From NCBI GenBank assembly GCA_937124585.1, contig CAKZKT010000080.1, positions 1 through 35,385 on the forward strand: DNA of 35,385 bases, read 5' to 3'. Origin of the DNA: an uncultured Anaerolineae bacterium (GTDB lineage Bacteria > Chloroflexota > Anaerolineae > CG2-30-64-16). The notes beneath the pieces were generated by a model. The model saw only the letters and a list, made by a program, of their open reading frames with translations, did not search any database and was not told the origin of the DNA. Numbering within the stretch: the stretch's first letter is position 1; the number at the start of each line of letters is the position of its first letter. Shown in pieces: positions 4,430 to 24,254 of the stretch. The translations under genes were made by a program, and so were the position numbers.

Positions 4430-7400
4430 TCACGGGCCCAGCATGACCGGGCCGAACATGGCCTTGTTGCCGTCCAACAACCAGACGGCCAGCTGATACT
4501 CGTAGCGTTCCGCAGGCGAGGCGCTCGAGTCTACGAACACATAATCGCCGCCCAGGGCTGAGCCTGCATGTTCGGCGGCGATAAGTTCAGCGCTGACAAC
4601 ACGCCAGGGGCCGCTGTTGCCGCCGTTCACCGCGCGACGCAGCACCTCGAAGCCCAGGATCCGCGCTTCGTTGGCCGTCTGCCAGGCAACGGCTGCCCCT
4701 TCTGGCGTCCTCCTGGCGGCCAGCCCGGTCACGGTCAGGCCGGTCGGCAGGATAATACGCACGCTGGCCACGCCGCTGCGCTCGGGCACCAGCAGCAGCG
4801 AGCCGAGCAGCGTTGGCCCGGCTGGATTCGCCCAGGCGCCCCGCACCGTCGCCACGATGGGCGTGCGACCGCCCGGCAGGAACGATGTATCGGCCACGGT
4901 CCTGAAGCTGGCGACGACGTGCACGGTTGCGCCCGGCGCCAACGCGCTATACGCGCCGACCAAATTGCGCCATTGAATCAACCCATCGTCCACATTGTCC
5001 TGGCTTGTCGGCGTCGCGCCCACGTAAGAGAGATAAGTAGGCGTGTAGACCAGTTGCAACGGCAGATAGGTGATCCAGGCCGAGCCGGTATTGGTGATGC
5101 GGATGGTGAACGAAATGACGACTCCTGGTCGGAGGTCTGCCGTGACGCCCTGGACGCTGACCGCGCAATGCGCAATGCCGGCGCCGAGCCCGATGCGATA
5201 ACCGAAATCCGCGGTCAGGTTGGTCGCGTTGCTGCCCAGCGTGATCGTGTAGGGCTGCGTCTGGTTATTGTTGTCCTGGCCGGGGAACGGCCCCAGCACT
5301 GTCGGCGCGTAACCCGACAACACGCCGAAATCATCGCTCACCGTGACCTGATAGCTGCCGGCAGGCCGCCCCGCGAACGCGTAGACGCCGTCGGGGCCGG
5401 TGGTCGTCGCTGCAATCGTATCGCCATCCTGCAAGAGCGCCACCGTGATTCCCGGCGCGCCCACGTCGCCCGTCGTCGGATTGAACAGGCCGTCGCCGTC
5501 CGTCTCGCCCCATACCTGGTTGCCGATGACGCCGGCCAGCAATCCCGAGGCGCGATAGAAGCCGAAGTCCGCAGCGAGATGCGTCGCACCGGCTGCCAGT
5601 GTCACCGGATAGGGATCGGTCTGGCTGTAGCCGTCCACACCTGCCGCGCCGAGCGGCCCGCGCGCGTAATCGGCGAGCACGCCGGCCGTATCGTTGACGT
5701 GCACCAGGTAGTTGCCCGCCGGCACGCCGCTGAAGAGATAGTTGCCGCCCAGCGCCGTCAACGTGCTGCTGGTGATCGCGGTGGCGACGATCGGCTCGCC
5801 AGGCCCCCAGGTCCGACTGCCGTTCAGGTCACGGATCAGCGACACGGTGACGCCGGCCAGCGGCGCATCACCCGTACCGAACACGCCGTTGCGATTGGCA
5901 TCCAGGAAGACCAGGTTGCCGATCGCGCCTAGCAGGGTACCCTGGGCGGTCTGTGCTGCGACGCCTTGCGCGACCTGGCTCGCCTCGCCGATGCCGAAGC
6001 GCGCCTCCAGCCACTGTTGACCGGCAGCCAGAGGCGGCACGAAAGCGGGCGCGGACGTCGTGGCCCGCAATCCGGCCAGAACCGGGCTGGCCGCCCAGTC
6101 CGGCCCAATGACATAGCCGCTGCCCGCCGCGACCTCGATGCGATAGACTCCGGCGGCATCGGTGACGGCGGACGCAAGACGCGCCCCGTTCACATCGGTG
6201 ATCGCCACGGTGACGCCCGGAATGCCCGGCTCGCCCGGCCGACGCACCCCATCGCCGTCGCCGTCGTACCACACCAGGTCGCCCACGATGGCCTTGTTGG
6301 CCACCGGTTCTCTGACGTATCCGAAATCTGCATCCTTGTAGATCTGTCCTGGCGCCAGGTTGATCGGCGCGGTGGGGTCGGGCTGGCTTTGCATCCCGAC
6401 GCTGTGGCGCAGTCCGCTCAACGCGCCGTTCGGGTTGGGGGCGTCCAGGATGTCCACGAAGTAGGCGCCCGCGGGCAGTCCGGTCAGAAGATAGCCGCCC
6501 GCCGCGTCGGTCAGCGTGGCCGTGAAGAGGGTATCGCCGGCATCCAGGACCCCGTTGCTGTTCGTGTCGAGATAGGCGGCGACGCGCACATTCGGCAACC
6601 CGCGCTCGCCCAGGTCCTCGACGCCATCGCCATCTGCGTCATACCAGATGTAATCGCCGATCGCACCCAGCCGGCTCACCCTGAAATAGCCGAAATCGGC
6701 CGTTGGATCATACTGGCCGTCCGTCAGGGTTACGGCATAGGGCTGCGCCTGATTGTGGTTGTCCTGGCCCGGCGTCGGGCCCGGCGCCGTCGGCGTCAGG
6801 CCCGCCAGCACACCGAAATCATCAGAGACCTCCAGGCTGTACGTCCCGGCAGGCAGATGGATGAAGCTGTACTGGCCGCCAGCGCCCGAGGTCGTGGCTG
6901 CGATCACCTCGCCAGCCTGGCTCAGCTCGATGGTCACGCCGGCCTGGCCGACATCGGCGCTCCCGAACAGGCCGTCGCCATCGCTCTCGACCCACAACAA
7001 ATTGCCGATCATCCCGCTGTCGGACAGAGCGGCCAGAACGTAGCCGAAATCGGCCGTGAGCGCACGACCGCCGGCCAGCAGGGTGACCGGATAGGGATCG
7101 GCCTGGTTATGGCCGTCGGTGCCGGGCGTCCCCAACGGCGCCGGGCGATAGTCGAGCAGCACCGCGTTGACCGCGCTGACATGCACCAGGTAATTGCCTG
7201 CCGGCACGCCGCTGAAGCGATAGTTGCCCCCGTCCGCGTCCAAAGTGCTGCCCGAGATCGCTGTCGCGATGATCGGCTCGCCGAGATCCCACGCGCGGTT
7301 GCCGTTGGCGTCACGGATCAGGTCAACGCTGATGCCGGGCAAGGGGGATTCACCGGTGTCGAAGACGCCGTTGGCGTTCGCATCGCGAAAGATCAAATTG

Positions 7401-8227
7401 CCGATCAGGCCCAAGCGGGTTCCCGAAGCATCCCGATAGCCGAAATCCACGTGTAGCGCCTGCTGCCCGGCCGCCACCACTGCGCTGCGCGGGCTCACGG
7501 TCGAGGGGGTCAGGCCGGCCGGGACGCCACCGGTCGGCGCCACGGTGTAGCTGCCGGCAGTCAGGGTCAGCAGGTAACGGCCTGCCGCGTCGGTCGTGGC
7601 GCAGGTAGACGCACCGCTGCCGGCAACCGCGCAGACCGACACACCCGCTATGCCCGGCTCGCCTGGCTGGCGCATGCCGTCGCCGTTGCCGTCGTACCAC
7701 ACCAGGTCGCCGATGACCATCTGGCCGGCGCCGGGCACACGACGATAGCCGAAATCGGCATCCCGATATACATAGCCGGCGCTCACATTGATCGGCGCGG
7801 TAGGTCCTGGCTGCGCCTGATTGCCCACCACCGGCGACAGGCCATCCAAAGGCCCACCGGCCACGCCAGCGCTGAGCACTTTGACCAGATAGACGCCGTC
7901 GGGCAAATTGCCGAACAGGTAGCCGCCGTCCGCGCCGGTAGTCGTAGTCATCACCAGCGTATCGCCGGGACTGATCTCGCCGTTCGCATCGTCATCCCGG
8001 TAGAGGTCCAACTGGACGTTCGGGATGCCCGGTTCGCCGATGCTCTGAATGCCGTCGCTGTTCGCGTCGTACCAGATGAAATCACCGATGGCACCCGCAG
8101 ACGCCAGCACCACATCAGGCGCCCTCGGGGCAGCGGCCTCAGCGCCCTGCGCCAAAAACCGGAACAGAAAAGCGGCAGCGATCAAGCCAGTGACAGCCAG
8201 CAGCCGGGCGATCATTGTCCTCCACAT
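4430..8227 (-). CDS. Secreted protein with eight SdrD-B-like repeats, a DUF11 domain and a Fn3-like C-terminus
   Basis: The protein has 1265 residues from ATG 8227, which has AAGGTGA five bases upstream and starts a classical signal peptide (MWRTMIARLLAVTGLIAAAF, cut after AEAAA near 34). ATG 8257 is an alternative, but its strong AGGAGGT lies about 13 bases away. Eight SdrD-B/Cna-B-like repeats follow, each opening with a form of IGDxIWYDxxxDG and closing with ADFGY. These motifs suit a calcium-stabilised beta-sandwich stalk. The repeats form two copies of a four-domain block (residues about 43-512 and 518-1015). A DUF11 domain follows (about 1015-1150, FTIRITNTG). The last 110 residues (VAWQTANEARILGFEVLRR) form a Fn3-like module shared with the end of the 24558-33926 protein. 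No LPXTG, PEP-CTERM or C-terminal membrane segment is visible. The likely role is structural or adhesive at the cell surface. Confidence 0.9.
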   Translation of the reverse strand: MWRTMIARLLAVTGLIAAAFLFRFLAQGAEAAAPRAPDVVLASAGAIGDFIWYDANSDGIQSIGEPGIPNVQLDLYRDDDANGEISPGDTLVMTTTTGADGGYLFGNLPDGVYLVKVLSAGVAGGPLDGLSPVVGNQAQPGPTAPINVSAGYVYRDADFGYRRVPGAGQMVIGDLVWYDGNGDGMRQPGEPGIAGVSVCAVAGSGASTCATTDAAGRYLLTLTAGSYTVAPTGGVPAGLTPSTVSPRSAVVAAGQQALHVDFGYRDASGTRLGLIGNLIFRDANANGVFDTGESPLPGISVDLIRDANGNRAWDLGEPIIATAISGSTLDADGGNYRFSGVPAGNYLVHVSAVNAVLLDYRPAPLGTPGTDGHNQADPYPVTLLAGGRALTADFGYVLAALSDSGMIGNLLWVESDGDGLFGSADVGQAGVTIELSQAGEVIAATTSGAGGQYSFIHLPAGTYSLEVSDDFGVLAGLTPTAPGPTPGQDNHNQAQPYAVTLTDGQYDPTADFGYFRVSRLGAIGDYIWYDADGDGVEDLGERGLPNVRVAAYLDTNSNGVLDAGDTLFTATLTDAAGGYLLTGLPAGAYFVDILDAPNPNGALSGLRHSVGMQSQPDPTAPINLAPGQIYKDADFGYVREPVANKAIVGDLVWYDGDGDGVRRPGEPGIPGVTVAITDVNGARLASAVTDAAGVYRIEVAAGSGYVIGPDWAASPVLAGLRATTSAPAFVPPLAAGQQWLEARFGIGEASQVAQGVAAQTAQGTLLGAIGNLVFLDANRNGVFGTGDAPLAGVTVSLIRDLNGSRTWGPGEPIVATAITSSTLTALGGNYLFSGVPAGNYLVHVNDTAGVLADYARGPLGAAGVDGYSQTDPYPVTLAAGATHLAADFGFYRASGLLAGVIGNQVWGETDGDGLFNPTTGDVGAPGITVALLQDGDTIAATTTGPDGVYAFAGRPAGSYQVTVSDDFGVLSGYAPTVLGPFPGQDNNNQTQPYTITLGSNATNLTADFGYRIGLGAGIAHCAVSVQGVTADLRPGVVISFTIRITNTGSAWITYLPLQLVYTPTYLSYVGATPTSQDNVDDGLIQWRNLVGAYSALAPGATVHVVASFRTVADTSFLPGGRTPIVATVRGAWANPAGPTLLGSLLLVPERSGVASVRIILPTGLTVTGLAARRTPEGAAVAWQTANEARILGFEVLRRAVNGGNSGPWRVVSAELIAAEHAGSALGGDYVFVDSSASPAERYEYQLAVWLLDGNKAMFGPVMLGP

Positions 8228-8351
8228 CGCAATCACCTTTGTGCAGGCAATGGACATGTCTCTGGTAAGAACCTCCTTTCCAGCCTCGCGTAATGTCACA
8301 GATCCTCGCCGCGCCTGAGACAATAACATCGTCCCTAATTAAAATAGAGAC

Positions 8352-8539: not shown

Positions 8540-10447
8540 TCAGTACGAGAATACGATCTCTGCACTGTCTATTTTGACCGTTGCGGGCTTACCGCCGTCA
8601 ACATCGCGCGTCGTCAGGACCACCGTCGTGTTGGCCAGTTCGGCAACCGTGGCGATGCGCGCCAGGTTCAGGACGAAGGCCCGATTCACATCTCGGTTCT
8701 GGACGGTGGAGCGCAACGTGCCCAGCTTAAGGCTCCGGCCGTCCGGGAAGACCTGTATCACGTCGAGCGCGGCGCCCTGATTGAAAGACTTCACTCGGAT
8801 CCGCACCTGTGGCTTGAAGATGTTGGTGGTGGCCTTGAGCGCGGCCGTGTTCCACTTGCGCAGCGTCAACGGCCCTTCCGATAGCTTCATCTCGACGACA
8901 TCGCCGCCCGGCTTGAGCCTGGACGCCACCTGCGTGTTGTGATAGATCGCGTCTGTCACCGTCGCAGTGCCCGTCAGCCCGAGCCCCATCCCCTGGCCGG
9001 CGTTAAGCATGCGGGCGATAGCGAGCGCTCGACTGTAGTCGGCCACAACGCCGCTCAGCAGCAGCGCTTCGATCTCATCCCTGGCCTGGCGCACCGTGAT
9101 CGCTTTCGAGAGCTGGCCCAGCTTGACCAACGTGTCGGGCCGCAACCGCAGGCTGGCGATGTTGAGCGACAAGCCGGCATATTCCTTCAACGCCCACCAT
9201 TTCTCGGCCGAAATGCCTGCAGCGCTTCCCAGCAACAGCGCATCACGCAGGGCCACGGTCTCCGAAAAGACACGCGACACCGTCTGCGCTCCGATGATGA
9301 AGTTCTCCTGCTCTGCGACGGTATAGGCCCACTGGCCAGCTTGGCGCAGCTCACGCTTCCAATCGGCAAGGCTCAACGGTGGCGCCAGTGCGGGATCGAA
9401 GAAGCCGACGTTCAATGTGGTGGTGACGTTCGCCTGCAGCGACGGGATCAACGCCGACGGGTCCGGGCTCAACAACCAGCCCACCGGCACGGGCGCCATG
9501 ACCCGAACCTGATAAGCGGCCACCGGCAGCTTCGCAAAGACGTATTTGCCGTCTATGCCTGTGGTCGCGGTGGCGACGATCGTGACGGGCGAGATCACCT
9601 GGCCGCCCGCCGCCGCCAGAAGTTGCACAACGGCCGAGCGAAGCGGGACTTCGTCGGCATCGGGGACCTCGTTGCCGTTCACGTCATTGAAGATGATGCC
9701 CTCGAGCCCGGCCTGGCCGATGGCGAAATTCTGCAAGAAGGTCGTCGCGCCCGCCTCATCGCTCTGGAGCGAGAGGGGCTGCGTGCTGCTCTCCGCGCCG
9801 CCGGGCAAACGGACGAGCACGATGCGGCTGCCGGGCCGCAGGTCGGCGATCAGATACAGGCCCTTCGCGTCGGAAGCCGCGCTGCCCACCGTGGCTTCGC
9901 CGAGATCAACCAACCCATTGCGGTTGGCGTCGTCGAAAACCTGGACCATTGCACCGGCGATGCGCGGCTCAGCCGTGGGCAGCCCACAGGCGCCATCGCC
10001 GTTCACATCCTGACACACCGTACCCCAGATCGAGATGGGATAGGCCAGGCCAAACCCAGGGCCCGCAGCCGGGCCGCCGGCCACCGTGGCCGCGCTGCTG
10101 GTCGCGGTAGTCGTCACATAGCCGGTCGGCGGCTCTATGGCCACCGTGTAGTTGCCCCCCGCCAGCGCCGCGAACGTGTAAACGCCGCCGGCATCGGTGG
10201 TCGTCGTGATCGCGATGCCAGCGCCCAGCACCCGAACGATGACACTCGGAATGCCGCGCTCGGCGCCGCCGGGCGCCAGCAGGCCGTCGCCATCAGAATC
10301 AAAAAACACCTTGCCGGAGAGCGAACCGGTCCCTGCTGGCTCGCTGGCCATGACCGACGTGGTTGCACCTGCGATAATGAGCAGTGCCGCCAATAGCGCC
10401 GTCAGCCCCAGCAACACATATCCGGTCGTCCGCTGCGTATAGTTCAT
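8540..10447 (-). CDS. Secreted protein with three SdrD-B-like domains and an unrecognised C-terminal region
   Basis: The protein has 635 residues from ATG 10447. GAGGAG sits 7 bases upstream and a signal peptide follows directly (MNYTQRTTGYVLLGLTALLAALLIIAGA); the frame stays open 15 codons further upstream without a better ribosome site. Three SdrD-B-like domains begin at about residues 42 (SGKVFFDSDGDG), 136 (WGTVCQDVNGDG) and 247 (EGIIFNDVNGNE). The first two, including VQVFDDANRNGLVDLGEA and a PGGAES stretch, match the N-terminal pair of the neighbouring subtilases, but no protease follows. Residues about 352-490 look alpha-helical (SLADWKRELRQAGQWAYTVAEQ), and 490-635 look beta-rich, ending in SAEIVFSY. 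I do not recognise this C-terminal region. It is transcribed alone, with its own promoter candidate and a strong terminator. The likely role is an extracellular structural or binding protein. Confidence 0.88.
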   Translation of the reverse strand: MNYTQRTTGYVLLGLTALLAALLIIAGATTSVMASEPAGTGSLSGKVFFDSDGDGLLAPGGAERGIPSVIVRVLGAGIAITTTTDAGGVYTFAALAGGNYTVAIEPPTGYVTTTATSSAATVAGGPAAGPGFGLAYPISIWGTVCQDVNGDGACGLPTAEPRIAGAMVQVFDDANRNGLVDLGEATVGSAASDAKGLYLIADLRPGSRIVLVRLPGGAESSTQPLSLQSDEAGATTFLQNFAIGQAGLEGIIFNDVNGNEVPDADEVPLRSAVVQLLAAAGGQVISPVTIVATATTGIDGKYVFAKLPVAAYQVRVMAPVPVGWLLSPDPSALIPSLQANVTTTLNVGFFDPALAPPLSLADWKRELRQAGQWAYTVAEQENFIIGAQTVSRVFSETVALRDALLLGSAAGISAEKWWALKEYAGLSLNIASLRLRPDTLVKLGQLSKAITVRQARDEIEALLLSGVVADYSRALAIARMLNAGQGMGLGLTGTATVTDAIYHNTQVASRLKPGGDVVEMKLSEGPLTLRKWNTAALKATTNIFKPQVRIRVKSFNQGAALDVIQVFPDGRSLKLGTLRSTVQNRDVNRAFVLNLARIATVAELANTTVVLTTRDVDGGKPATVKIDSAEIVFSY

Positions 10448-10511
10448 AGACCGGCTCCTCTCCATATCTTTATCATGGTACATGGATGACACGTGCCTGA
10501 CTCATCGCAAC

Positions 10512-10626: not shown

Positions 10627-11634
10627 TCACCGGACCGCGATCGCCGAGATGACCGTCGGCAGGTCGCCGCCGACCGGGGCAAAGCCGATGTTCAGCACGC
10701 CGTCGCTGACCGTCACCGTGTAGGTGCGGTTCAGCGCTGTCGCGCTGCCGACCGTCGCGTAGATGTCCAGGCCGCTCTCGACGACGACGCCTTCCAGAGT
10801 GATCTGCATCACGCGCTGACCAGGGCCGGTGGCGACGAATTCGGCGAACCGAAGCTCGACCTCGAAGAGACCGTTCGGGACCGTGAATCTGAACTCGGAC
10901 AGCCCCTGGCGATGTTTCTGATACAGGAAGTCGTCCGTCGTGTCGTTGACCGGCATCGTTGTCGAAGCAGGCGCGCCATCCACATAGCCCCATGCACCGG
11001 CCGCGAAGAGCTGCTCGGCGGTCCAGGTGAGGCCCTGGCTATCGGTGAAGGTCGGGCCGCCCGCGTTCGTGCGCAACAGGTAGGCCGGTCGCGTCGGCGT
11101 GGCGGTCGGCGCGGTGGTCGCAGTGGGCGTGGCGGTCGGCAGCGGTGTGCTCGGGCTGCCGGTGGCCGTGGGCGTCGGCTGGATGGCCTGACCGCCCACC
11201 ACCGCGCTCTCTACCTCGACGGCCGAAACCATCGGCTTGTACCTGCCGCCGTTCTGCGCGAACGCGACGGTGAGCACGCCGTCCGTCACGGTGGTGGTGT
11301 AGATGCGATCCAGTGCGGTTGCCTTGTCAACAACCTCCAGCACATTGAGCGCGTTCTCCACCACGACGCCCTCGATCGTGATCTTCATGATGCGTTTGCT
11401 CGTGGCCGTGGCCACGAACTCGGCGAACTTCAGGGTCACCTGATAGTCGCCGTTCGGCACGGTGAAGTTGTAGGCACTCATCCCCTCTCGATACTTCTGA
11501 TAGAGGAGATCGTCCACCGTGCCGCTGACCCCTGTGGTCGAAGACTTGGCCGAGCCGCCCACGTAGCCCGCGTTGCCGGCGACGTAGGCTTTATCCGCCT
11601 CCCACACCTGGCCCAGGCTGTCGGTGAACGTCAC
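10627..11634 (-). CDS. C-terminal part of the frameshifted subtilase: two malectin-like domains
   Basis: This 335-codon frame begins at a GTG inside the stop of the upstream frame (they overlap as GTGA). It starts in the middle of a malectin-like domain (TFTDSLGQVWEADKAY) and has no signal peptide, so it is almost certainly the displaced 3' end of the gene at 11631-14402. It holds the rest of malectin-like domain 2 (about 1-145), a Thr-Pro-Ala linker, and malectin-like domain 3 (about 184-335, [17 protein letters not shown] to VISAIAVR). Both carry the local signature LYQKYREGM or LYQKHRQGL, FTVPNG and LRFAEF-type strands. Malectin folds bind carbohydrate in characterised relatives; ligand binding here is inferred. 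As an independent protein it would stay in the cytoplasm, unless termination-reinitiation or frameshifting joins it to the upstream part. Confidence 0.75.
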   Translation of the reverse strand: MTFTDSLGQVWEADKAYVAGNAGYVGGSAKSSTTGVSGTVDDLLYQKYREGMSAYNFTVPNGDYQVTLKFAEFVATATSKRIMKITIEGVVVENALNVLEVVDKATALDRIYTTTVTDGVLTVAFAQNGGRYKPMVSAVEVESAVVGGQAIQPTPTATGSPSTPLPTATPTATTAPTATPTRPAYLLRTNAGGPTFTDSQGLTWTAEQLFAAGAWGYVDGAPASTTMPVNDTTDDFLYQKHRQGLSEFRFTVPNGLFEVELRFAEFVATGPGQRVMQITLEGVVVESGLDIYATVGSATALNRTYTVTVSDGVLNIGFAPVGGDLPTVISAIAVR

Positions 11635-11640
11635 CCCCCG
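11631..11640 (-). other. Single-base frameshift site in a G6 homopolymer
   Basis: The gene strand reads TCC GGG GGG TGA. With seven Gs instead of six it would read FNSGG-VTFTDSLGQVW, exactly the domain opening seen in the sister copies ([22 protein letters not shown]). The run is at 11634-11639. Possible explanations are a sequencing or assembly error, a genuine one-base deletion, or slippage on the G-run. Confidence 0.8.
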
Positions 11641-14402
11641 GAGTTGAAACGCCGCAGATAGGGCGCCGGTGTGGCGGTCGGCGTGACAGTCGGCGTGGCA
11701 GTCGGTGTCGCCGATGGCGTGGCGGTCGGCGTGAAGGTAAGCGTCGGCCCGCCAGGGGTGATCGTCGGCGTCGGCGTCTGGGTGGCGGTGGGCGTGGCGG
11801 TCGGGGTGGGCGGGATGTAGGGCCGAACCTCGATGGCCGCCACCATCGGCGCGAGAGTGCCGCTCACTTTGGCGAACTCGATGTTCAACAGGCCATCGGA
11901 TACGGTCACCAGGTAAGTCTTGTCGTAAGCCGTGGCCTTTCCCGCCTCTTTGTACACGTCGAGGCTGGCTGCGACCACTGCGCCCTCGATCGTGATCCTC
12001 ATCACCCGGACGCCCGTTTTGGTGGCGCTCAGCTCGGCAAACCGGAGCTGCACCTCATAGGTGTTGTTCGGCACGGTGAAGTTGTAAGCCGTCATGCCCT
12101 CGCGATATTTCTGATAGAGGGCATCGTCTACCGTGCCGTTGATTGCGGTCGTGGAAGATTTGGCCGAGCCGCTCACGTAGCCCCAACCGCCGCTCACGTA
12201 TGCCTGATCGGGATCCCAGACCTGGCCCAGGCTATCGGTAAAGCTGGCGCCGGCCGCATTTACACGGCGGAGATAGGGTGCCAGCGTAGGGCTGACAGTC
12301 GGCGTCCGCGTGGCTGTGGCGGTGGCGGTTGCGGTGGCCGTCCGCGTGGCCGTGGCCGTGGCAGTTGCGGTAGCTGTGGGCGTCGCAGTCGGTGTCGCCG
12401 TGGCAGTTGCGGTGGCCGTGGGCGTGGCGGTCGGTGTCGCCGTGGACGTGGCGACGGGCGTAGAGCTGGCGGTCGGTGTCGCCGTCGGCGTGACTGTCGG
12501 CGAGGAGGTCGGGGTCGACGTGAAGGGCGTCCAGTTGCTCGCCAGCATCAGCGCGGCAGCTGCATCAATGCGGCCCCAGCCATAGTAGATGTCGAACCCC
12601 GCCGCGCCCTTGTCCACCACGGTCTGCTCGATAATGGCCCGCACGTCGGCCGCCGAGAGATTGGGCCGATAGGAGAACAACAGGGCCGCCAGGCCGCTGA
12701 CGTGCGGTGCGGCCATCGAAGTGCCGCTCAGAAAGCCGTAGGTATCTGTGCCCGTGGTGCGATTCCAATAAGTGCTCCAGATGCTGGCGCCGGGCGCAGT
12801 CACATCCACCCATGCCCCGTAATTCGACAGGGTCCAGTACACATCATCTTCATTGGTAGCGCCGACCGCGATCGCTTCCTCGTAATAGGCCGGATAGAAC
12901 GGCGCGCTCGAGCCCTGATTGCCCGCAGCAGCCACGACCACGGCGCCCTTGCCGGCAGCGTAGCGCACTGCATCTTGCATCACCGAGGAGAAGGATGTGC
13001 CACCCAGGCTGAGGTTGATGACTTTGGCACCGTAATCGGCAGCATAGCGGATGCCCTGGGAGATGTTCGCCCAGGTGCCCGTGGGCGGATTGGCATTGTT
13101 GAGCACCTTGATGGGCATCAGCCGCACGTTCGGCGCGATGCCGACCATGCCCTGGCCATTCATGGCCGCGGCCACGATGCCGGCCACATGCGTACCATGC
13201 CCCTGATCGTCGGTGGGGTTGTTGTCGCCGTTGACGTAGTCCCAGCCTGCGGTCAAGCGACCGGCGAACTCGGGATGCGTCGACGAGACACCGGTGTCCA
13301 CGATGGCGACGATCACGCCCGAAGAGCCGGTCGAGAAGTCCCAGGCCGTCGGCATGTTGATCGTCTGCGGCGCGAAGACGCGGAATGGATCATGGAAATC
13401 GGGATCGGCAGGAACAAGCATGACGCCGGCAACGCCGTTGGGTTCGACATAGCGTACTTCGGGCAGCCGGCCCAGGGCCTCGGCCGCTGCCTTCAAGTCA
13501 GCCGGATCCACGACCACATGATAGATATCGCCGCCCAACGGTTGCCTGATCGTCGCGCGCGCGGTAGCCAGCAAGGCGACGATGCGCGCCAACGAGACTC
13601 CCGGCCGGAAAGCCACCAACAATTCGCCGGGCATATGGGCCGGTAAACCATCGGTCGGCGTAAACACCGGGCCGGCCGGCGTGACGCGCCGGCCGTTGAG
13701 CAGCGGCGCCGCGCTGCCTGCCTCTTCGGCTTGCATGATGATCGGCTCAACTGTTGCCTCGGCGCCGCCCGGCGGCCGACGCACGACAATGTGGCGGCCA
13801 GGCAACAAGCGGGACACTTTCCAGTTCCCCTGATAGTCGCTGACGGCTGCCCCCAACAGCGCTTCGCCCATGTCCACCAGGCCATTGCCGTTGACATCGC
13901 CGAAGACCTGAATCAGCCAGTCGGGAAAGCCCGGTTCTGTCGGCCCTTTGGCGCCGTCGTGGTTCAGGTCGTCGAATTCGGTACCGGTGAGCGTCTGCAT
14001 GAGGGTGGCGCCGAAGTCAATCTCGCCGATCGGCCCGCCAGAGACGGAAACGATCACCGGCGTGAGGGTGGTCACGGTGAATGGTTCGGTCACGACGATG
14101 GCAACCGTGTACTGCCCATCGGCCAGGCCGGAGAACACATAGGTCCCATCGGTGGCCGTCTGAGCTGAGATGGAAAAGGCCTGGCCACCCGTCAAGACAT
14201 CGCGCAGTTCCACGGTCACCCCCGACAGGCCACCTTCGTGTGCCGCTCGTGTGCCGCTGGCATCTTTATCGAAAAAGACAACGCCCGATATCGCGCCGAC
14301 GCCGCTTTGTACGCCGGGTCCCCATACCAATGCGCTGGCCACAGGCGCGGCCAGCAAAATCAAGGCCAGGACAACGAATAGCGCACGTATTGGCTGGCTC
14401 AT
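11631..14402 (-). CDS. Secreted subtilisin-like serine protease (S8) with SdrD-B N-terminus and malectin-like domain, frameshifted
   Basis: The protein has 923 residues from ATG 14402 (AAGGAAG just upstream) to a premature stop. A signal peptide (1-26) is followed by two SdrD-B-like domains (about 33-115 and 120-210, the second with IQVFGDVNGNGLVDMGE). Next come an I9/fervidolysin-type propeptide (about 254-325, PGELLVAFRPGV to EVRYVEPNG) and an S8 catalytic domain (345-620). The catalytic triad is Asp369 (IVDTGV), His402 (GHGTHVAG) and Ser562 (GTSMAAPHV), with oxyanion Asn495 (AAAGN). A long Thr-Pro-Ala linker (620-708) leads to malectin-like domain 1 (709-861), another linker, and then the first residues of domain 2 before the stop. 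The intact gene would span 10627-14402 and encode about 1260 residues, comparable to its two intact paralogues here. The protease domain is complete, so the truncated product may still be secreted and active. Confidence 0.9.
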   Translation of the reverse strand: MSQPIRALFVVLALILLAAPVASALVWGPGVQSGVGAISGVVFFDKDASGTRAAHEGGLSGVTVELRDVLTGGQAFSISAQTATDGTYVFSGLADGQYTVAIVVTEPFTVTTLTPVIVSVSGGPIGEIDFGATLMQTLTGTEFDDLNHDGAKGPTEPGFPDWLIQVFGDVNGNGLVDMGEALLGAAVSDYQGNWKVSRLLPGRHIVVRRPPGGAEATVEPIIMQAEEAGSAAPLLNGRRVTPAGPVFTPTDGLPAHMPGELLVAFRPGVSLARIVALLATARATIRQPLGGDIYHVVVDPADLKAAAEALGRLPEVRYVEPNGVAGVMLVPADPDFHDPFRVFAPQTINMPTAWDFSTGSSGVIVAIVDTGVSSTHPEFAGRLTAGWDYVNGDNNPTDDQGHGTHVAGIVAAAMNGQGMVGIAPNVRLMPIKVLNNANPPTGTWANISQGIRYAADYGAKVINLSLGGTSFSSVMQDAVRYAAGKGAVVVAAAGNQGSSAPFYPAYYEEAIAVGATNEDDVYWTLSNYGAWVDVTAPGASIWSTYWNRTTGTDTYGFLSGTSMAAPHVSGLAALLFSYRPNLSAADVRAIIEQTVVDKGAAGFDIYYGWGRIDAAAALMLASNWTPFTSTPTSSPTVTPTATPTASSTPVATSTATPTATPTATATATATPTATPTATATATATATRTATATATATATRTPTVSPTLAPYLRRVNAAGASFTDSLGQVWDPDQAYVSGGWGYVSGSAKSSTTAINGTVDDALYQKYREGMTAYNFTVPNNTYEVQLRFAELSATKTGVRVMRITIEGAVVAASLDVYKEAGKATAYDKTYLVTVSDGLLNIEFAKVSGTLAPMVAAIEVRPYIPPTPTATPTATQTPTPTITPGGPTLTFTPTATPSATPTATPTVTPTATPAPYLRRFNSGG
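12275..12540 (-). repeat. Low-complexity Thr-Pro-Ala linker repeat
   Basis: Six-base periodic DNA encodes a long Thr/Pro/Ala/Ser linker (TPTATPTAT-type with TATATATRT stretches) between the protease and the first malectin-like domain. Shorter linkers of the same kind occur at about 11100-11190, 11660-11815, 21340-21430 and 22450-22560. They probably form an extended flexible, possibly glycosylated, spacer. Confidence 0.8.
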
Positions 14403-14652: not shown

Positions 14653-17600
14653 CTATTCGACGCAGATGGTCGCCACCATCGGCGGCAGCGTACCACCAGC
14701 CTGAGCAAAGGAGATGTTCAACACGCCGTCGCTGACCGTCACGGTGTAGACGCGCTCCAGAGCGGTTGCTCTGCCGGCAACGGCAAACACATCCAACGCG
14801 CTCTCGACCTCAGCACCCTCCAGGCTGATGCGCATGACGCGCTGGCCCTTCTTCGTCGCCGCCAGCTCAGCAAAGCGCAGTCGCACCGTGTACAGGCCGT
14901 TCGGCACCGAGAAGCGATACTCGCTCATCCCTTCCCGATAGCGCTGGAACAGGAACGGGTCGCCGGCGCCGGCAACTGCACCGCTGCTCGCCACGGCCAC
15001 GCCGTCTACATAGCCCCAGCCGCCGAGGGTATAGGCCTGGTCGGCCTGCCAGGTGACGCCGGCGCTGTCGGTGAAGGTAGGGCCGCCGCTGTCCACGCGC
15101 TGCGCATAGGCGCCGCGCACGGCCGTGGCGGTTGGCGTCGGCGTGACGGTCGGCGCGCCGGGCACAGATGCATCGCTGGACTTCACCAGGATGGCCGAGG
15201 CCATCGGCGCTTTGCTGCCACCATTTTTGGCAAAGCCGATGTTCAGCATGCCATCGCTCACGGTGACCATGTAGCTGCGCTGGACGAGCGCGCCCTTTCC
15301 GGCCACCGCATAGATGTCCAGGGCGTTCTCGACTGTGGCGCCTTCCAGCGAGATGCGCATCACCCGCTCACCGGCCTTGCCCGCCACGAACTCGACGAAA
15401 CTCAGCTCGACCTGATATGTGCCGTTCGGCACGGTGAAGCGATATTCGGACATCCCTTCCCGATATTTCTGGAAGAGGAAATCATCCGTCGTGCCCGCGA
15501 CCGACAGCGTCGAGGATTTGGCGCTGCCGCCCACATAGCCCCACGAGCTCGCCGCGAACGCCTTGTCGGCCGCCCAGACCGCGCCGTGACCATCGGTATA
15601 GGTCGGCCCGCCACAGTCCACTCGCTGCACGTAAATCGGCCGGGTCGGCGTGGCGGTCGGCTGCGCGGTCGGCGTGGCCGTGGGCGCCGTGGTCGGTGTC
15701 GCGGTCGGCTGCGCGGTCGGCGTCGCCGTGGGCGCCGTGGTCGGCGTCGCGGTCGGCTGCGCGGTCGGCGTGGCCGTGGGCGCTGTGGTCCGCGTCGCGG
15801 TCGGCTGCGCGGTCGGCGTCGCCGTGGGCGCTGTGGTCCGCGTCGCGGTCGGCTGCGCGGTCGGCGTCGCCGTGGGCGCTGTGGTCGGCGTCGCGGTCGG
15901 CGAGCTGCTCCAGCCGCCAGCGGCCTGCACGGCCGCCGCGATGTTGATCCGGCCCCAGCCGTAGTAGGGATCGAGGCCCGTAGCGCCCTTATCGGTGGCC
16001 GTGTTCTGGATGATCGTGCGCACCTCGACGGGGCTCAGGGCCGGGTTGACCGACCAGATGAGCGCAGCCAGCCCCGCCACGTGGGGCGCAGCCATCGAAG
16101 TGCCGCTCATGAACGCAAAGGCGTGCGGGTTGCTCGTCGTCCAGTAGGTGTTCCAGATGCTCGACCCGGGCGCCGAGACATCCACCCAGCTGCCGTAGTT
16201 CGAAATGGACCAGTACGCGTCATACTCGTCGGTGGCGCTGACCGCGACCACTTCCTCGTAGTAGGCCGGATAGAAGGCGGCGCTGCTGCCGTTGTTGCCT
16301 GCAGCTGCCACCACCAGCGTGCCTTTGTTCAGGGCATAGCGAATGGCGTCCTGGAGCGCCGTAGACGGGGTGGTTCCCCCCAGGCTCAGGTTGACGACCT
16401 TCGCGCCGTGGTCGGCTGCGTAGCGAATGCCCAGGGCCACGTTGGCCCAGGTGCCGCTCTTCGCGGCGCTGAGCACCTTGATCGGCATGATCGAGACGCT
16501 CGGCGCGACGCCGACCGTGCCCAGGCTGTTGTTCATCGCTGCGGCGATGATGCCGGCCACATGGGTGCCATGGCCCTGATCGTCGCTGGGATCGGCGTCG
16601 CTGTTGACGAAGTCCCAGCCTTCCAGGATCCGACCGGCAAATTCGGGATGGCTGAGCGAGACGCCCGTATCAACCACGGCCACGATCACGCTCGCGCTGC
16701 CGGTCGTGACATCCCACGCCGCCGGTGCGCCGAGCAGTTGGGGCGCGTACACCAGGAAGGGATCGTGATAGTCCGGATCGGTCGGCGTCAGGCCGGCGCA
16801 GGCGATGCCGTTGCGCTCGACATAGCGCACATCGGGCCGGCTCGCCAGGGCTGTCATGGCTTTCGCCAGCTGCGCCTCAGGGGCAGCAATCAGATAGGTA
16901 TCATCGGCGATCTGGGCCTTGACCGCGACGCCGAATCGGCTCAGGAATGCGGCCGCTTCGGTCGGCGGGACGCCGCGGCGAAAGCCGATCAGGGCCTCGC
17001 CCGGCTGGTAGGCCGGCCGGCTCGGATCGGCGCACGGATCGGCTGTAGCCTGGACCGCCTCGTCCAGCGCGACCGCCGTGCTCACTTCGTTAGCCACCAG
17101 GAAGGCCGGCATCTGCCGCTCAGTCTTGCCATCGGCCGTGCGCATCGCCACCACGCGGCGCCCCGGCTTCAGCCCACGGATCACCCAGTTGCCCTGCGCA
17201 TCGGTCACCGCGGCGCCGAGCCTGGCTGCGCCCGTTTCGACGCGCTGCGTGCCCTTCGCATCGTCGTAGACCTGCACCTGGACGCCGGGGATGCCGCGCT
17301 CGCCCAAGCCCTTCACGCCGTCGCCGTTGCGATCGTCGAAATAGGTGCCGACCAGGGTGAGCAGCGGACTGACGCCGAAATCTACCCCCTGTAGCCCCCG
17401 CACCTGCAGCTCCCGCATGTCATCTGTGACGCGCTGGGGACTCTTGTCCGCCGGCGGAATCGGATCAATGCCGGGCCCGGTCTGGAAACCGACCAGCGTC
17501 ACGGTACGCCGTTCGATGACCGTGTTTGCGAACGCGGCGTTCTCTGGCCGCACGACCGTGTATGTGCCGGCGGGCAAGCCGCTGAAGCGATAGGAACCGT

Positions 17601-17859
17601 CGGCAGCGGTCGTGATCTGGCGGCGAAATGCCTGGCCATCGGTCGCAGCATCCCGCAACTCGACCACAAGGCCGGCGATCCCGTTCTCGTCCGCTTCGCG
17701 CAGACCGTTTCCGTTGCGATCGAAGAAGACCACGCCGGCGACTTCGCCGACGCCGGCCAGCGGCGCCGCTGCCGCCGGCACAAGGCTCGCGAACGAGATG
17801 ACCCCGATAACCATCACCCCGATCAAACGATACAGAAAAACCTTCGCCCACACACTCAT
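14653..17859 (-). CDS. Secreted subtilisin-like serine protease (S8) with SdrD-B N-terminus and two malectin-like domains
   Basis: The protein has 1068 residues from ATG 17859, chosen because GAGGTG lies 5 bases upstream and the signal peptide follows directly ([19 protein letters not shown]). The frame is open 17 codons further upstream. Domains in order are: signal peptide (1-32), SdrD-B-like 1 (35-115, [12 protein letters not shown]), SdrD-B-like 2 (167-260, [12 protein letters not shown]), I9-type propeptide (about 283-355, [12 protein letters not shown] to DVRYVERNG), and S8 catalytic domain (380-650). The catalytic residues are Asp397 (VVDTGV), His430 (GHGTHVAG), Asn522 (AAAGN) and Ser588 ([11 protein letters not shown]). 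A linker of 16-residue repeats and two malectin-like domains (about 743-895 and 917-1068) follow. The protein ends inside the last malectin strand (MVATICVE) with no sorting signal. It is the closest intact paralogue of the split gene at 10627-14402. It lacks the direct-repeat promoter element and lies downstream of the response regulator gene. Its substrate is unknown. Confidence 0.93.
15645..15900 (-). repeat. 48-bp tandem repeat encoding a 16-residue Thr-Pro-Ala linker unit
   Basis: About five tandem, nearly identical 48-bp units encode repeats of the form [16 protein letters not shown], with Pro or Arg at one variable position. The array lies between the protease domain and the first malectin-like domain. 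Such an array can change copy number by slippage or recombination without breaking the frame. Confidence 0.85.
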
Positions 17860-20870: not shown

Positions 20871-23800
20871 TCAGCGCACTTCGATCGCCGACACCATCGC
20901 CGCATAGCGGCCGCCGGCTTGAGTGAAGGTGATGTCCAGGATGCCGTCACTGACTGTGACGGTGTAAATTTTGTCGAGGGCCACGCCTTTGCCGACAAGC
21001 TTCGCCACGTCCAGGGCCGTCTCCACGACGGCGTCCTCCATCGAGATGCGCATTACGCGGTCGCCGGCCCTCGCCGTTGCGAACTCGGCGAAGCGCAGGG
21101 TCACCTGATAGACGCCGTTCGGCACGGTGAAGCGATAGACGCTCATCCCTTCCCGATACTTCTGGTAAAGCAGGTCATCGTCGGTGCCCGCGACGGTCGA
21201 AGTGGACGACTTCGCCCTGCCGGCCACATAGCCCCAGCCGCCGACGGCGTACACCTGGTCGGCCGACCAGACCCGACCTGCCAGATCGGTGTAGGTAACA
21301 CCCCCAGCATTCACCCGTCGGGCATAGGAAACGCTGGTCGCGGTGGCTGTCGGCGTGCTGGTGGGTGTCGCAGTGGCTGTCGGCGTCAGGCTCGGCGTCG
21401 GGCTGGGGGTCGCGGTCGGAGCAACGGTTGGCGGCAGCGCCCCCTCCCACATGATCGCAATGGCTGAGACCAGGGCGTCTTTGCGCGTCGTCTTGGACAG
21501 GACGATGTTTAACTGGCCGTCGGTCACAGCCGCTGTGTAGACACGCTCCAACGGCTGCCCGGCGCCCGCAAGCGCCACGATGTCGAGGCCCGATTCGACC
21601 TGCTGCCCTTCGATGGCCACCTCCATCACCCGCTCGCCGGCCTTGTTCACCTCAAACTCGGCAAAGCGGAGGGCGATGCGGTAGACACCCGGATAGACGT
21701 CGGCCTGATACTTCACATCGCGGCCTTGGCGCCAGGTGGTGTACAGGCGGCCATCGGCGAAGGAATCGTCGCCGCTGGCTACCGAGCCGACCGATCCTTC
21801 CGTCCAGCCCCAGGTCGGCGCCTTTTTGCCATCGTACTTTTGATCGGCAGCCCAGGTCAGGCCGGACGTATCGGTATAGGGATTGCTGCCGCCGACGTCA
21901 ATTCGCGCCACCAGCATCGGGGGGACAAGCGTGGCCGTCGGCGTGAAAGTGGGCACAGGAGTTGTGGTGGGAACCGGCACACTGCCGTCCAACGCCTGCA
22001 CTTCGATGGCCGAGACCATCGGCTTCAATGTGCCGCCCACCCCCTCGAACGCGATCGCCACCTGACCGCCGGCGTCGGCGACAACATAGCTGCGGTCGAG
22101 CGCGGTGGCTTTTCCTGCGGTCTTGAAGACATCCAGCCCGCTTTCGACCAGCAGCCCGTTGACCGTGATCCGCATGACGCGCGCGCCGGCCTTCGTCGCG
22201 GCGAACTCGGCGAAACGCAGGGTCACGCGGTAAGCGCCATTCGGTACCGTGAACCGATACTCGGTCATCCCCTCGCGATAGGTTCGGTAGAGGGGATCGT
22301 CCACGGTGTTGTTGACCGCGCTCTTGGACGACTTGATCGCGCCGCCGAGGTAGCCCCAGCCGTCCGCGCTGAAGGACTGATCGGCCGACCACACGATGCC
22401 CTGGCTATCGGTGAACGTCACACTGCCCGCGTTGACGCGGCGCACGAAGAGCGGCACAGGCGTCGCGGTGGCGGTCGGCGTAGCGGTCGGTGTGGCCGTG
22501 GGCGTCGGCGTTTCGGTCGGGGTCTCGGTCGGCGTCGGCGTCCAGGTGGCCGTCGGTGCGGGAGTGACAGGGACCCAGCTCGCGGCCGCGCCCAACGCGG
22601 CCCCGGCATTGATGCGGCCGGCGCCGTACAGCAGGTCGGGACCCGTCTCGCCCAGGTCGTCCGCGGTCTGGCGGATGATCTGGCGCAGGTCGGCAGCCGT
22701 AAAGGTCGGATTGGCCGCCAGCAGGAGCGCGGCCAGGCCGCTCACATAGCCGGTGGCCATCGAAGTGCCGCTCTTGAACGCGTAGGTCGCCGGGTCCGCT
22801 GCGGTCCAGTATGTGCTCCAGATGTTGGCGCCCGGCGCGGCCACGTCCAGATAATCGCCATAGTTGCATGAGGTCCAGCGCACGTCGTTGCTGTCGGTGG
22901 CAGCGACGGCCATTGTCTCCGCGTAGCTGGCCGGATAGAAAACGCCGCCGTCGGGGACGTTACCGGCCGCTGCAATTAACAACGCGCCCTTTCCGGCCGC
23001 ATAACGCACGGCATCCAGAAGGACAGCAGCATCCACCGGCCCGCCCAGGCTGAGGTTGATGATCTGCGCGCCCTGATCGGCGGCGTAGACGATGCCGGCC
23101 GCGATATCGGCCCAGGAGCCGGTGTTCATGGCGTTCAGCACCTTCACCGGCATCAGGCTCACTTCGGGCGCTACACCGACCAGCCCCACGTCGTTGTCCA
23201 TTGCCGCCGCGATGATGCCGGCCACATGGGTGCCGTGACCCTGATCGTCGCTGGCGTCCGCATCGCCGTTGACGAAATCCCATCCCGGAACGATCCGGCC
23301 GGCCAGTTCCGGGTGTGCGGCCGAGATGCCCGAGTCCACCACGGCCACCGTGATCGCGGGATTGCCCCGAACGGCATCCCAGGCGCTTTCGGCGTTGATT
23401 TTGCGCAGGCCATAGCTTTTGGCCGGTTCGCTGTAGTCCGGATCACTGGGCACGTAGGCGCCGGTGGCCAGGTAGTTGCGCTCGACATAGCGCACCAGCC
23501 TGTCGGATTGCAAGCCGGTCAACAGAGCCTCGGCGACAGCGGCCGAGCTCTGAAGGACGATTGCGTTCAGGGCCGGGATCTGCCGGACGACCTGGGGCGC
23601 GGCCGCTGGCTGGCGGCCGCGGCCTCCGGCCAGCTCCAGGCTGCGCGCGAGCACCGCCTGCATAGCCTTTTCAGAATCAGCAGCCGGCCAGAGGCCGACG
23701 ATCACCTGGTCCTCGACATAGGGCTGCGTGGCATGGCCGAAGTTCTTGCCCGAGAAAAAACTACCGACACGCCCGGCCGCCGGCCACATGACTTCATCGG

Positions 23801-24254
23801 CCACCGGTCGGCCTTTACCCGCAAGGGCCTCCCCATCAACGGCGATGGTCGAGATGACCCGATCCCGCCCGGAGGAGACGACGAATGCGTGCTGGCCAGG
23901 AGTGGTCAATCGCTCGCCGGCCGGCAGAGAGCGCACGTCGAGCTGCACCAGAAATGCGCCGCTCTCCGCCACCGCCAACCGATAATCGCCGGCGCCGTCG
24001 GTGGTGGTCACCGCGACGACGGGATCGGCGCGATCTGCCAGGCCGTTGCCGTTGAGGTCACGCACCAGGCGCACCGCAAGGCCAGGCGTGCCGATCTCAC
24101 CGGCATCGAAAACGCCGTCTGCATTGCGATCGAAAAACGCTTTGCCGGACACCGTGACCAGCACAGCGCCCTGCGCCATCGAAGCAAGCATCAGGATGCC
24201 CATCAGGATGAGCAGCACAAAGATACCTACCCATGCCAGACCTTTTCCTGTCAT
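20871..24254 (-). CDS. Secreted subtilisin-like serine protease (S8) with three malectin-like domains
   Basis: The protein has 1127 residues from ATG 24254 (AGGAG six bases upstream, signal peptide MTGKGLAWVGIFVLLILMGIL directly after). One SdrD-B-like domain (about 35-110, SGKAFFDRNADGVFDAGE) is followed by a divergent region and a propeptide-like segment (about 175-265, EDQVIVGLWPAADSEKAM to LVRYVERNYL). The S8 domain (285-560) has Asp307 (VVDSGI), His340 (GHGTHVAG), Asn432 (AAAGN) and Ser498. The serine motif is GTSMATGYV instead of the usual GTSMAAPHV or GTSMASPHV, so the conserved Pro after Ser is missing. After a Thr-Pro linker come three malectin-like domains (about 603-757, 780-937 and 975-1127). 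The middle one diverges (RIDVGGSNPYTDTSGLTW, WRQGRDVKY) from the near-identical outer two. It is likely a surface or matrix protease. Activity is probable because the triad is intact, but the altered serine loop leaves some doubt. Confidence 0.93.
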   Translation of the reverse strand: MTGKGLAWVGIFVLLILMGILMLASMAQGAVLVTVSGKAFFDRNADGVFDAGEIGTPGLAVRLVRDLNGNGLADRADPVVAVTTTDGAGDYRLAVAESGAFLVQLDVRSLPAGERLTTPGQHAFVVSSGRDRVISTIAVDGEALAGKGRPVADEVMWPAAGRVGSFFSGKNFGHATQPYVEDQVIVGLWPAADSEKAMQAVLARSLELAGGRGRQPAAAPQVVRQIPALNAIVLQSSAAVAEALLTGLQSDRLVRYVERNYLATGAYVPSDPDYSEPAKSYGLRKINAESAWDAVRGNPAITVAVVDSGISAAHPELAGRIVPGWDFVNGDADASDDQGHGTHVAGIIAAAMDNDVGLVGVAPEVSLMPVKVLNAMNTGSWADIAAGIVYAADQGAQIINLSLGGPVDAAVLLDAVRYAAGKGALLIAAAGNVPDGGVFYPASYAETMAVAATDSNDVRWTSCNYGDYLDVAAPGANIWSTYWTAADPATYAFKSGTSMATGYVSGLAALLLAANPTFTAADLRQIIRQTADDLGETGPDLLYGAGRINAGAALGAAASWVPVTPAPTATWTPTPTETPTETPTPTATPTATPTATATPVPLFVRRVNAGSVTFTDSQGIVWSADQSFSADGWGYLGGAIKSSKSAVNNTVDDPLYRTYREGMTEYRFTVPNGAYRVTLRFAEFAATKAGARVMRITVNGLLVESGLDVFKTAGKATALDRSYVVADAGGQVAIAFEGVGGTLKPMVSAIEVQALDGSVPVPTTTPVPTFTPTATLVPPMLVARIDVGGSNPYTDTSGLTWAADQKYDGKKAPTWGWTEGSVGSVASGDDSFADGRLYTTWRQGRDVKYQADVYPGVYRIALRFAEFEVNKAGERVMEVAIEGQQVESGLDIVALAGAGQPLERVYTAAVTDGQLNIVLSKTTRKDALVSAIAIMWEGALPPTVAPTATPSPTPSLTPTATATPTSTPTATATSVSYARRVNAGGVTYTDLAGRVWSADQVYAVGGWGYVAGRAKSSTSTVAGTDDDLLYQKYREGMSVYRFTVPNGVYQVTLRFAEFATARAGDRVMRISMEDAVVETALDVAKLVGKGVALDKIYTVTVSDGILDITFTQAGGRYAAMVSAIEVR

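What the first reader, a model, noticed from the sequence alone, without database searches (positions are those of the whole stretch)
13400..14402. Adhesin-like domains placed before the subtilase propeptide
In this gene and in those at 14653-17859 and 20871-24254, SdrD-B-like domains lie between the signal peptide and the I9-type propeptide. S8 proteases usually have the propeptide straight after the signal. Autoprocessing at the propeptide would then cut the SdrD-B part from the protease-malectin part, releasing two separate extracellular proteins or leaving the N-part as an anchor.
Basis: partly seen in the sequence, partly recalled or inferred. Interest (0 to 1): 0.5.

Follow-up and report, generated by a model that had tools for sequence, protein, structure and literature searches.

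The report
Stalk domains ahead of protease propeptide
Some Chloroflexota bacteria make secreted protein-cutting enzymes that carry an extra stalk-like module in front of the self-removed start-up segment, so that activation should split each protein into a stalk piece and a free enzyme; the same module also heads a neighbouring, non-enzyme protein found in the same few genomes.

Summary
All three window proteins read signal peptide, SdrD_B domain(s), fervidolysin-type prodomain, thermitase-like S8 domain, malectin domains. AlphaFold gives the segment before the catalytic domain the expected beta-alpha-beta-beta-alpha-beta order, and thermitase residue 1 aligns with Leu341 (first protein) and Tyr276 (third), placing the predicted self-cleavage site right behind the prodomain. 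That cut would separate the N-part from protease plus malectin. No anchor was found on either side, and SdrD_B is a stalk domain rather than a ligand-binding adhesin domain.

The layout is rare: 16 genes in 7 of 396 class genomes, 0 of 140 other S8 frames. In two-domain members the N-part is better conserved than the prodomain (10 of 10 pairs), so it is no disposable leader. It groups with the first domains of a companion protein (window 8540-10492), whose C-terminal domain occurs in the same 7 genomes and, weakly, one more. In one tandem array catalytic domains are almost identical while N-part and prodomain differ, the border lying at the predicted cleavage site. Bacillus WprA is a precedent for one subtilase precursor giving two wall proteins. 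Cleavage itself is not shown. New variant of a known kind; moderate interest.

The parts
11631..14402 (-).
   Evidence: ATG preceded by GGAAGG
14334..14402 (-). P0001 signal peptide, residues 13-35 of the ORF, probable cut after ASA
   Evidence: read by eye; hydrophobic window at residue 11
14043..14291 (-). P0001 SdrD_B domain 1 (residues 50-132)
   Evidence: Pfam PF17210 50-124, 55.0 bits; home-made HMM
13722..13982 (-). P0001 SdrD_B domain 2 (residues 153-239)
   Evidence: home-made SdrD_B HMM only, 24.0 bits; aligns with second domains of relatives
13641..13721 (-). P0001 flexible linker between SdrD_B 2 and prodomain
   Evidence: pLDDT under 50 at model residues 192-220
13437..13640 (-). 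P0001 prodomain (residues 267-334)
   Evidence: PF22148 32.5 bits, cut-off 21; beta-alpha-beta-beta-alpha-beta, block pLDDT 89-97 at model 231-290
13418..13419 (-). P0001 predicted self-cleavage bond Met340-Leu341 (between the two bases given)
   Evidence: thermitase 1-279 aligns to model 298-589, Z 48.4, rmsd 1.0, 278 residues; junction list
12573..13322 (-). P0001 S8 catalytic domain
   Evidence: triad motifs
11865..12269 (-). P0001 malectin domain
   Evidence: PF11721 82.8 bits
10627..11634 (-). Frame-shifted continuation of P0001 with two malectin stretches (P0008)
   Evidence: one uninterrupted frame in the relative L142:6050-9244
14653..17859 (-). Subtilase gene P0002: signal, two SdrD_B, prodomain, S8, two malectin
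17497..17742 (-). P0002 SdrD_B domain 1
17080..17349 (-). P0002 SdrD_B domain 2
16810..17040 (-). P0002 prodomain
   Evidence: PF22148 291-367, 28.1 bits
16791..16792 (-). P0002 predicted cleavage bond Gly373-Leu374
   Evidence: by alignment with P0001 and P0003
15952..16692 (-). P0002 S8 catalytic domain
20871..24254 (-). Subtilase gene P0003: signal, one SdrD_B, prodomain with an insert, S8, three malectin
23880..24146 (-). P0003 SdrD_B domain
   Evidence: 30.1 bits, cut-off 29.7; model strands 5-112
23475..23735 (-). P0003 prodomain
   Evidence: PF22148 23.5 bits, cut-off 21; beta-alpha-beta-beta-alpha-beta at model 151-233
23456..23457 (-). P0003 predicted cleavage bond Ala275-Tyr276
   Evidence: thermitase 1-279 aligns to model 239-528, Z 48.2, rmsd 1.1, 279 residues
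22617..23357 (-). P0003 S8 catalytic domain
8540..10492 (-). Companion gene P0007: signal, three SdrD_B, then a C-terminal domain without a Pfam match over cut-off
   Evidence: C-terminal domain 8543-9445 found in the same 7 genomes plus one weak partial match
4430..8329 (-). Multi-SdrD_B protein P0004 (8 stretches), downstream of the companion in the window; relatives near the cluster in L142 and L153

Best explanation
These are secreted, thermitase-like S8 proteases whose precursor carries, between signal peptide and prodomain, a stalk module of one or two SdrD_B domains joined to the prodomain by a flexible linker. After export the prodomain helps the catalytic domain to fold, and the enzyme cuts the bond just behind the prodomain (Met340-Leu341 in P0001). 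The products are (a) N-part plus prodomain, first held non-covalently as inhibitor, and (b) mature protease with malectin domains that can sit on glycans. The N-part is a working module, not a disposable leader: the same two-domain module heads the companion P0007, so it probably serves as a shared address or assembly piece at the cell surface, left in place when the protease is freed. Shown: layout, intact catalytic motifs, predicted fold, rarity, conservation, shared module, co-occurrence. Inferred: that cleavage happens, where the N-part goes, and that it meets the companion.
For: Pfam order over cut-off in all three proteins. Prodomain fold order in two models. Foldseek alignments to pro-subtilisin E 3whi run over 378-384 columns against 275-292 for mature thermitase and subtilisins, so they take in the prodomain. 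Thermitase residue 1 aligns to Leu341 of P0001 and Tyr276 of P0003. Pro-x-Asp-Pro at the mature start is invariant in 8 of 8. HGTHV and GTSMA are present in 16 of 16, the Asn motif too (one has ASGN instead of A[AM]GN). N-part identity 37-45% exceeds prodomain identity 21-37% in 10 of 10 pairs of two-domain members. In the L152 array nucleotide identity jumps from about 58% to 98-100% at the predicted cleavage site. Protease N-parts and companion N-parts form one side of a 99/98 branch apart from 17 other SdrD_B pairs. Companion C-domain in 7 of 7 genomes with the layout and 1 of 389 others, that one weak and partial. WprA precedent.
Against: No protein was seen cut. Both AlphaFold models place the prodomain elsewhere than in unprocessed pro-subtilisin (joint rmsd about 22 A); they show the catalytic N-terminus in the mature position, which may be why, but docking is not shown. 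The prodomain profile reaches solved prosegments only weakly (1spb_P E 0.023, 1scj_B E 0.09). One relative (L143:10533-13940) has a long insert between prodomain and mature start, so its site is unsure. Among one-domain members the N-part is less conserved than the prodomain in 2 of 6 pairs. A tandem neighbour in G607 (L155:2177-4582) has no SdrD_B, so the module is dispensable there. The seven genomes come from two families and are not independent. The companion's C-domain has no known function.
Confidence: 0.6

Rival explanations
1. The N-part is only an extended pro-region: a spacer that helps export or folding and is degraded together with the prodomain, with no function after cleavage.
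For: One tandem neighbour and most relatives do without it. The number of domains varies from one to two. Subtilase pro-regions are normally destroyed (recalled; the Plasmodium SUB1 propiece is cleaved by another protease, passages of PMC10128010).
Against: In two-domain members it is better conserved than the prodomain in 10 of 10 pairs, and it is shared with a non-protease companion in the same genomes.
Confidence: 0.25
2. The N-part is a tether that keeps the zymogen at the cell surface until cleavage releases the protease (shedding).
For: Seven other subtilases of the survey (L017, L018, L027, L029, L030, L033, L069, read by eye) have a Cys-led, lipoprotein-like start and a low-complexity linker before the prodomain, a tether in the same place. 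B domains bear force in staphylococcal proteins (abstract of PMC6232131).
Against: No lipobox-like Cys, LPxTG or second membrane span was found in P0001-P0003 (lipobox by eye). An anchor would need an unknown partner.
Confidence: 0.3
3. No cleavage occurs: the protease stays one long surface protein with the prodomain as a permanent inhibitor, so the enzyme is mostly inactive.
For: AlphaFold models do not dock the prodomain as in known zymogens.
Against: All 16 keep the catalytic motifs, and the mature N-terminal segment is conserved (8 of 8).
Confidence: 0.08
4. Gene fusion or gene-call artefact: neighbouring reading frames joined by assembly or wrong starts.
For: The genomes are largely fragmented assemblies; P0001 does end in a frame-shift.
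Against: Each N-part, prodomain and catalytic domain lies in one open frame, with matching layouts in 16 genes from 7 genomes; the frame-shift lies far downstream of the N-part.
Confidence: 0.02

Closest known systems
Thermitase (peptidase family S8, PDB 1thm)
   Same: Catalytic domain of P0001 50-52% identical in structural alignment, Z 48.4, rmsd 1.0 A; same mature N-terminal segment Pro-x-Asp-Pro
   Different: Thermitase, as solved, is the catalytic domain alone; here SdrD_B lies before the prodomain and malectin behind the protease
Fervidolysin (PDB 1r6v) and its prodomain family PF22148
   Same: Prodomain model passes the cut-off in all three; fervidolysin is among the Foldseek matches over 424-441 columns
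   Different: In fervidolysin the prodomain comes first (recalled); no SdrD_B
Bacillus subtilis WprA (CWBP23 and CWBP52)
   Same: One subtilase precursor gives two wall proteins, one with the protease and one without (passage of PMC2323362)
   Different: Its N-part was not compared here; no claim of SdrD_B in WprA is made
Staphylococcal Sdr proteins (SdrC, SdrD, SdrG)
   Same: The B domain family PF17210
   Different: No LPxTG and far below the NCBIfam MSCRAMM cut-offs
Chloroflexota subtilases with SdrD_B behind the protease (for example L010, L089, L090, L119)
   Same: Same protease clade (99/99 branch), same domain kinds
   Different: SdrD_B follows the catalytic domain and would stay attached to the enzyme (10 of 140 frames)

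Membership tests
Peptidase family S8 (subtilase) | Catalytic domain with Asp, His, Ser motifs | tested here: met
   PF00082 194-211 bits in all three; motifs in 16 of 16
Peptidase family S8 (subtilase) | N-terminal prodomain of propeptide fold before the catalytic domain | tested here: met
   PF22148 over cut-off in all three; fold order in two models; docking as in zymogens not reproduced
Peptidase family S8 (subtilase) | Self-cleavage behind the prodomain | not testable with these tools
   Needs protein work; site inferred from thermitase
Usual subtilase layout (not a defining feature) | Prodomain straight after the signal peptide | tested here: not met
   One or two SdrD_B domains intervene in 16 genes
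SdrD_B domain family PF17210 | Score over the Pfam cut-off | tested here: met
   55.0, 79.4 and 30.1 bits against 29.7; P0003 only just
SdrD_B domain family PF17210 | Calcium binding | not testable with these tools
   Asp/Asn-Gly loops are visible in the sequence, binding not tested
MSCRAMM / Sdr adhesin | LPxTG wall-sorting motif | tested here: not met
   None in P0001-P0015
MSCRAMM / Sdr adhesin | Score over NCBIfam SdrC or SdrD models | tested here: not met
   15-43 bits in P0001 and P0002, not listed for P0003, against cut-offs of 1700 and 2500
Two-product wall protease (WprA-like in working) | Both halves found as stable proteins | not tested
   No protein data

The most novel reading that the evidence does not exclude
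The subtilases and the companion P0007 form one surface system: both are exported with the same two-domain SdrD_B address module; self-cleavage strips it off the enzymes and leaves it in the structure to which the companion (which keeps its module) belongs, so that one assembly step both installs a stalk and releases an active protease. Exchangeable N-part plus prodomain units in front of a homogenised protease, as in the G490 array, would let the same enzyme be delivered by different stalks.
Probability: 0.2. Interest if true: 0.65.

Novelty: new variant of a known kind. Interest (0 to 1): 0.47.

Why it matters
Subtilase pro-regions are mostly treated as throw-away folding aids. Here a structured, conserved module sits in front of the prodomain, is shared with a non-protease neighbour, and should be set free by the same cut that activates the enzyme. 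If true, protease activation doubles as a way to deposit a stalk protein, and the companion offers a handle on what these large, unstudied SdrD_B loci of Chloroflexota do.

Tried and rejected
Anchor signals: LPxTG and hydrophobic spans were looked for in P0001-P0015 and gave no anchor for the N-part. Two P0001 windows over the threshold fall in the SdrD_B and prodomain stretches and were not counted as membrane spans.

Single origin: the 16 proteins as one clade were rejected (p-AU 0.019); the 14 without the long-N-terminus pair L154 and L156 were not (p-AU 0.0985). So the layout was probably gained, or lost, more than once.

A profile of the prodomains against solved structures gave no significant match; the two best of ten at E up to 1 were subtilisin prosegments. 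The VIA tables are filled by the S8 domain and say nothing on the SdrD_B part. Rfam gave nothing. Promoter-like patterns were not above chance; terminator-like ones were 10 against a shuffled mean of 7.0, sd 2.5, and are not used. The companion C-domain found no Pfam family over cut-off and no solved relative. Paper searches for this layout or its setting listed no paper that I recognised as describing it; for these I saw listings only, and passages or the abstract where stated.

Limits: the class search and the phylum search scored about three candidates a genome and their match lists were cut; the 140 other S8 frames were drawn by likeness to the window, so the rarity is for near relatives, and they leave out loci that repeat the 16 genes. 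Rows starting at profile positions 130-160 (for example G456, G128) were not opened.

Full report
What is there. The three minus-strand genes were translated and scanned against Pfam. Each has a signal peptide (by eye), SdrD_B (PF17210), the fervidolysin-type prodomain (PF22148, 32.5, 28.1 and 23.5 bits against a cut-off of 21), Peptidase_S8 and one to three malectin domains. A home-made SdrD_B HMM shows two domains before the prodomain in P0001 and P0002 and one in P0003. Pfam alone calls only the first SdrD_B of P0001; the second rests on the home-made HMM and on the alignment with relatives.

Is it a propeptide? AlphaFold models of P0001 residues 44-646 (38 sequences, mean pLDDT 83.1) and P0003 residues 38-577 (32 sequences, 86.4) both show beta-alpha-beta-beta-alpha-beta just before the catalytic domain (model 225-292 and 151-233), preceded by a disordered linker (192-220 and 115-148). 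Foldseek alignments to pro-subtilisin E (3whi) extend over 378-384 columns, against 275-292 for mature thermitase and subtilisins. The joint rmsd is near 22 A, so the prodomain is not docked as in the unprocessed enzyme. In both models the catalytic domain superposes on thermitase from its residue 1 on, that is, with the N-terminus in the mature place; in an uncut chain that pulls the prodomain away from the active site (inference). I take this as a limit of the model, but it leaves docking unshown.

Where would it cut? Thermitase residue 1 aligns to Leu341 of P0001 (Z 48.4, rmsd 1.0, 278 residues) and Tyr276 of P0003 (Z 48.2, rmsd 1.1, 279 residues). P0002 follows by alignment (Leu374). Pro-x-Asp-Pro at this place is invariant in 8 of 8 aligned relatives. 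The catalytic motifs are present in all 16 relatives with the layout (one has ASGN at the Asn motif).

How rare is it? In the window's genome ten S8 matches exist; three are the window genes, and of the others three with a readable prodomain start (L001, L003, L007) have it soon after the signal (by reading). Among the S8 frames of the 80 named loci the SdrD_B HMM hits upstream of the catalytic domain only in L008 and L009, one Chloroflexota assembly (JPNG_maxbin.037). In 400 phylum genomes every listed row outside the window's genome begins at profile position 164 or later (read by eye, list cut). A profile of eight members (A2) searched in 396 class genomes found the layout in seven: G000, G404, G490, G552, G580, G607, G648, confirmed on reading frames: 16 genes. 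G580 and the JPNG assembly (G446) share contig number and coordinates and are taken as one genome. In 140 other S8 frames from 132 fetched loci SdrD_B lies upstream in 0 and downstream in 10. These loci were drawn by likeness, so this is a rate among near relatives.

Origin. In a tree of 67 catalytic domains the 16 lie inside a 25-row set (99/99) with 9 without the layout, and three changes are needed. One clade of all 16 is rejected (p-AU 0.019); one clade of 14 is not (0.0985). L154 and L156, with other domains further upstream, look like a second event. L155:2177-4582 in G607 is a tandem neighbour without SdrD_B.

Is the N-part under constraint? Across 10 of 10 pairs among five two-domain proteins from four genomes, identity is 37-45% in the N-part, 21-37% in the prodomain and 54-65% in the catalytic domain. 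For six pairs among four one-domain proteins the N-part exceeds the prodomain in four and falls short in two (32 against 41%, and 34 against 35%), so the pattern is clean only for the two-domain form.

A recombination border. G490 carries four tandem genes with the layout (L152). Three share 93-96% catalytic amino acids and 83-96% of fourfold sites, while their N-parts share 52-57% and prodomains 46-53%. In the closest pair nucleotide identity climbs from about 58% to 98-100% at the PNDPYY start of the mature enzyme. Fourfold sites differ too, so selection on protein alone does not explain it; homogenisation of the protease stretch is the simple reading. It makes N-part plus prodomain one unit and the protease another, with the border at the predicted cut. 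It is one array in one genome.

The companion. P0007 (window 8540-10492) has three SdrD_B and a C-terminal domain of about 300 residues without a Pfam family over cut-off or solved relative. Its first two SdrD_B domains and the protease N-parts form one side of a 99/98 branch against 17 pairs from multi-SdrD_B proteins. Its C-domain is found in 8 of 396 class genomes: the seven with the layout and, at E 4e-4 over 83 of 300 positions, G727. Fisher's exact test gives 3e-14, but genomes of two families are not independent draws. In five of seven it sits on the protease contig (G000, G404, G490, G552, G580); in G607 and G648 on another, and the G648 copy matches only half of the domain.

How it most likely works. 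Export, folding with the prodomain's help, self-cleavage, release of protease plus malectin, and an SdrD_B piece left over. The B domain in staphylococci bears force and binds calcium (abstract of PMC6232131), which suits a stalk. WprA of B. subtilis, a subtilase split into CWBP52 (protease) and CWBP23, is the nearest working precedent (passage of PMC2323362). In Plasmodium SUB1 the cut prodomain stays bound until another protease destroys it (passages of PMC10128010), so the N-part could also stay with the enzyme for a time. I found no anchor, so 'N-part as an anchor' needs a partner; the companion is the natural candidate, but nothing shows that they bind.

Verdict. Observation confirmed; mechanism plausible and partly supported; the companion and the conservation of the N-part raise it above a curiosity of layout. 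New variant of a known kind.

Noticed in passing
window 11631-11640: The P0001 reading frame breaks at a run of G between its first and next malectin domains and goes on in another frame as P0008; an uninterrupted relative exists (L142:6050-9244). Assembly error, real lesion or slippage cannot be told apart.
   Followed up: partly
window 8543-9445: The C-terminal domain of P0007 is a small, unnamed family confined, but for one weak match, to the genomes with the SdrD_B-first subtilases.
   Followed up: partly
L152:1793-17438 and L155:974-1237: Prodomains of five relatives (four in L152, one in L155) carry two cysteines, one near each end of the prodomain, which could form a staple (sequences).
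   Followed up: no
L143:10533-13940: This relative has a long Ala/Pro-rich insert between prodomain and mature start, so its activation site may differ.
   Followed up: no
L017, L018, L027, L029, L030, L033, L069: Seven subtilases begin with a Cys-led lipoprotein-like segment and a low-complexity linker before the prodomain, a possible membrane tether in the place where the window genes have SdrD_B (by eye).
   Followed up: no
window 18702-20726: A PAS/GAF-type sensor histidine kinase gene (named by eye) lies between two of the subtilases.
   Followed up: no
window 24558-33926: A 3122-residue protein with 11 SdrD_B domains by the home-made HMM is transcribed away from the cluster.
   Followed up: no
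L156:1786-9582: A 2599-residue S8 protein has SdrD_B both before the catalytic domain and in a long C-terminal run, plus further domains ahead.
   Followed up: no
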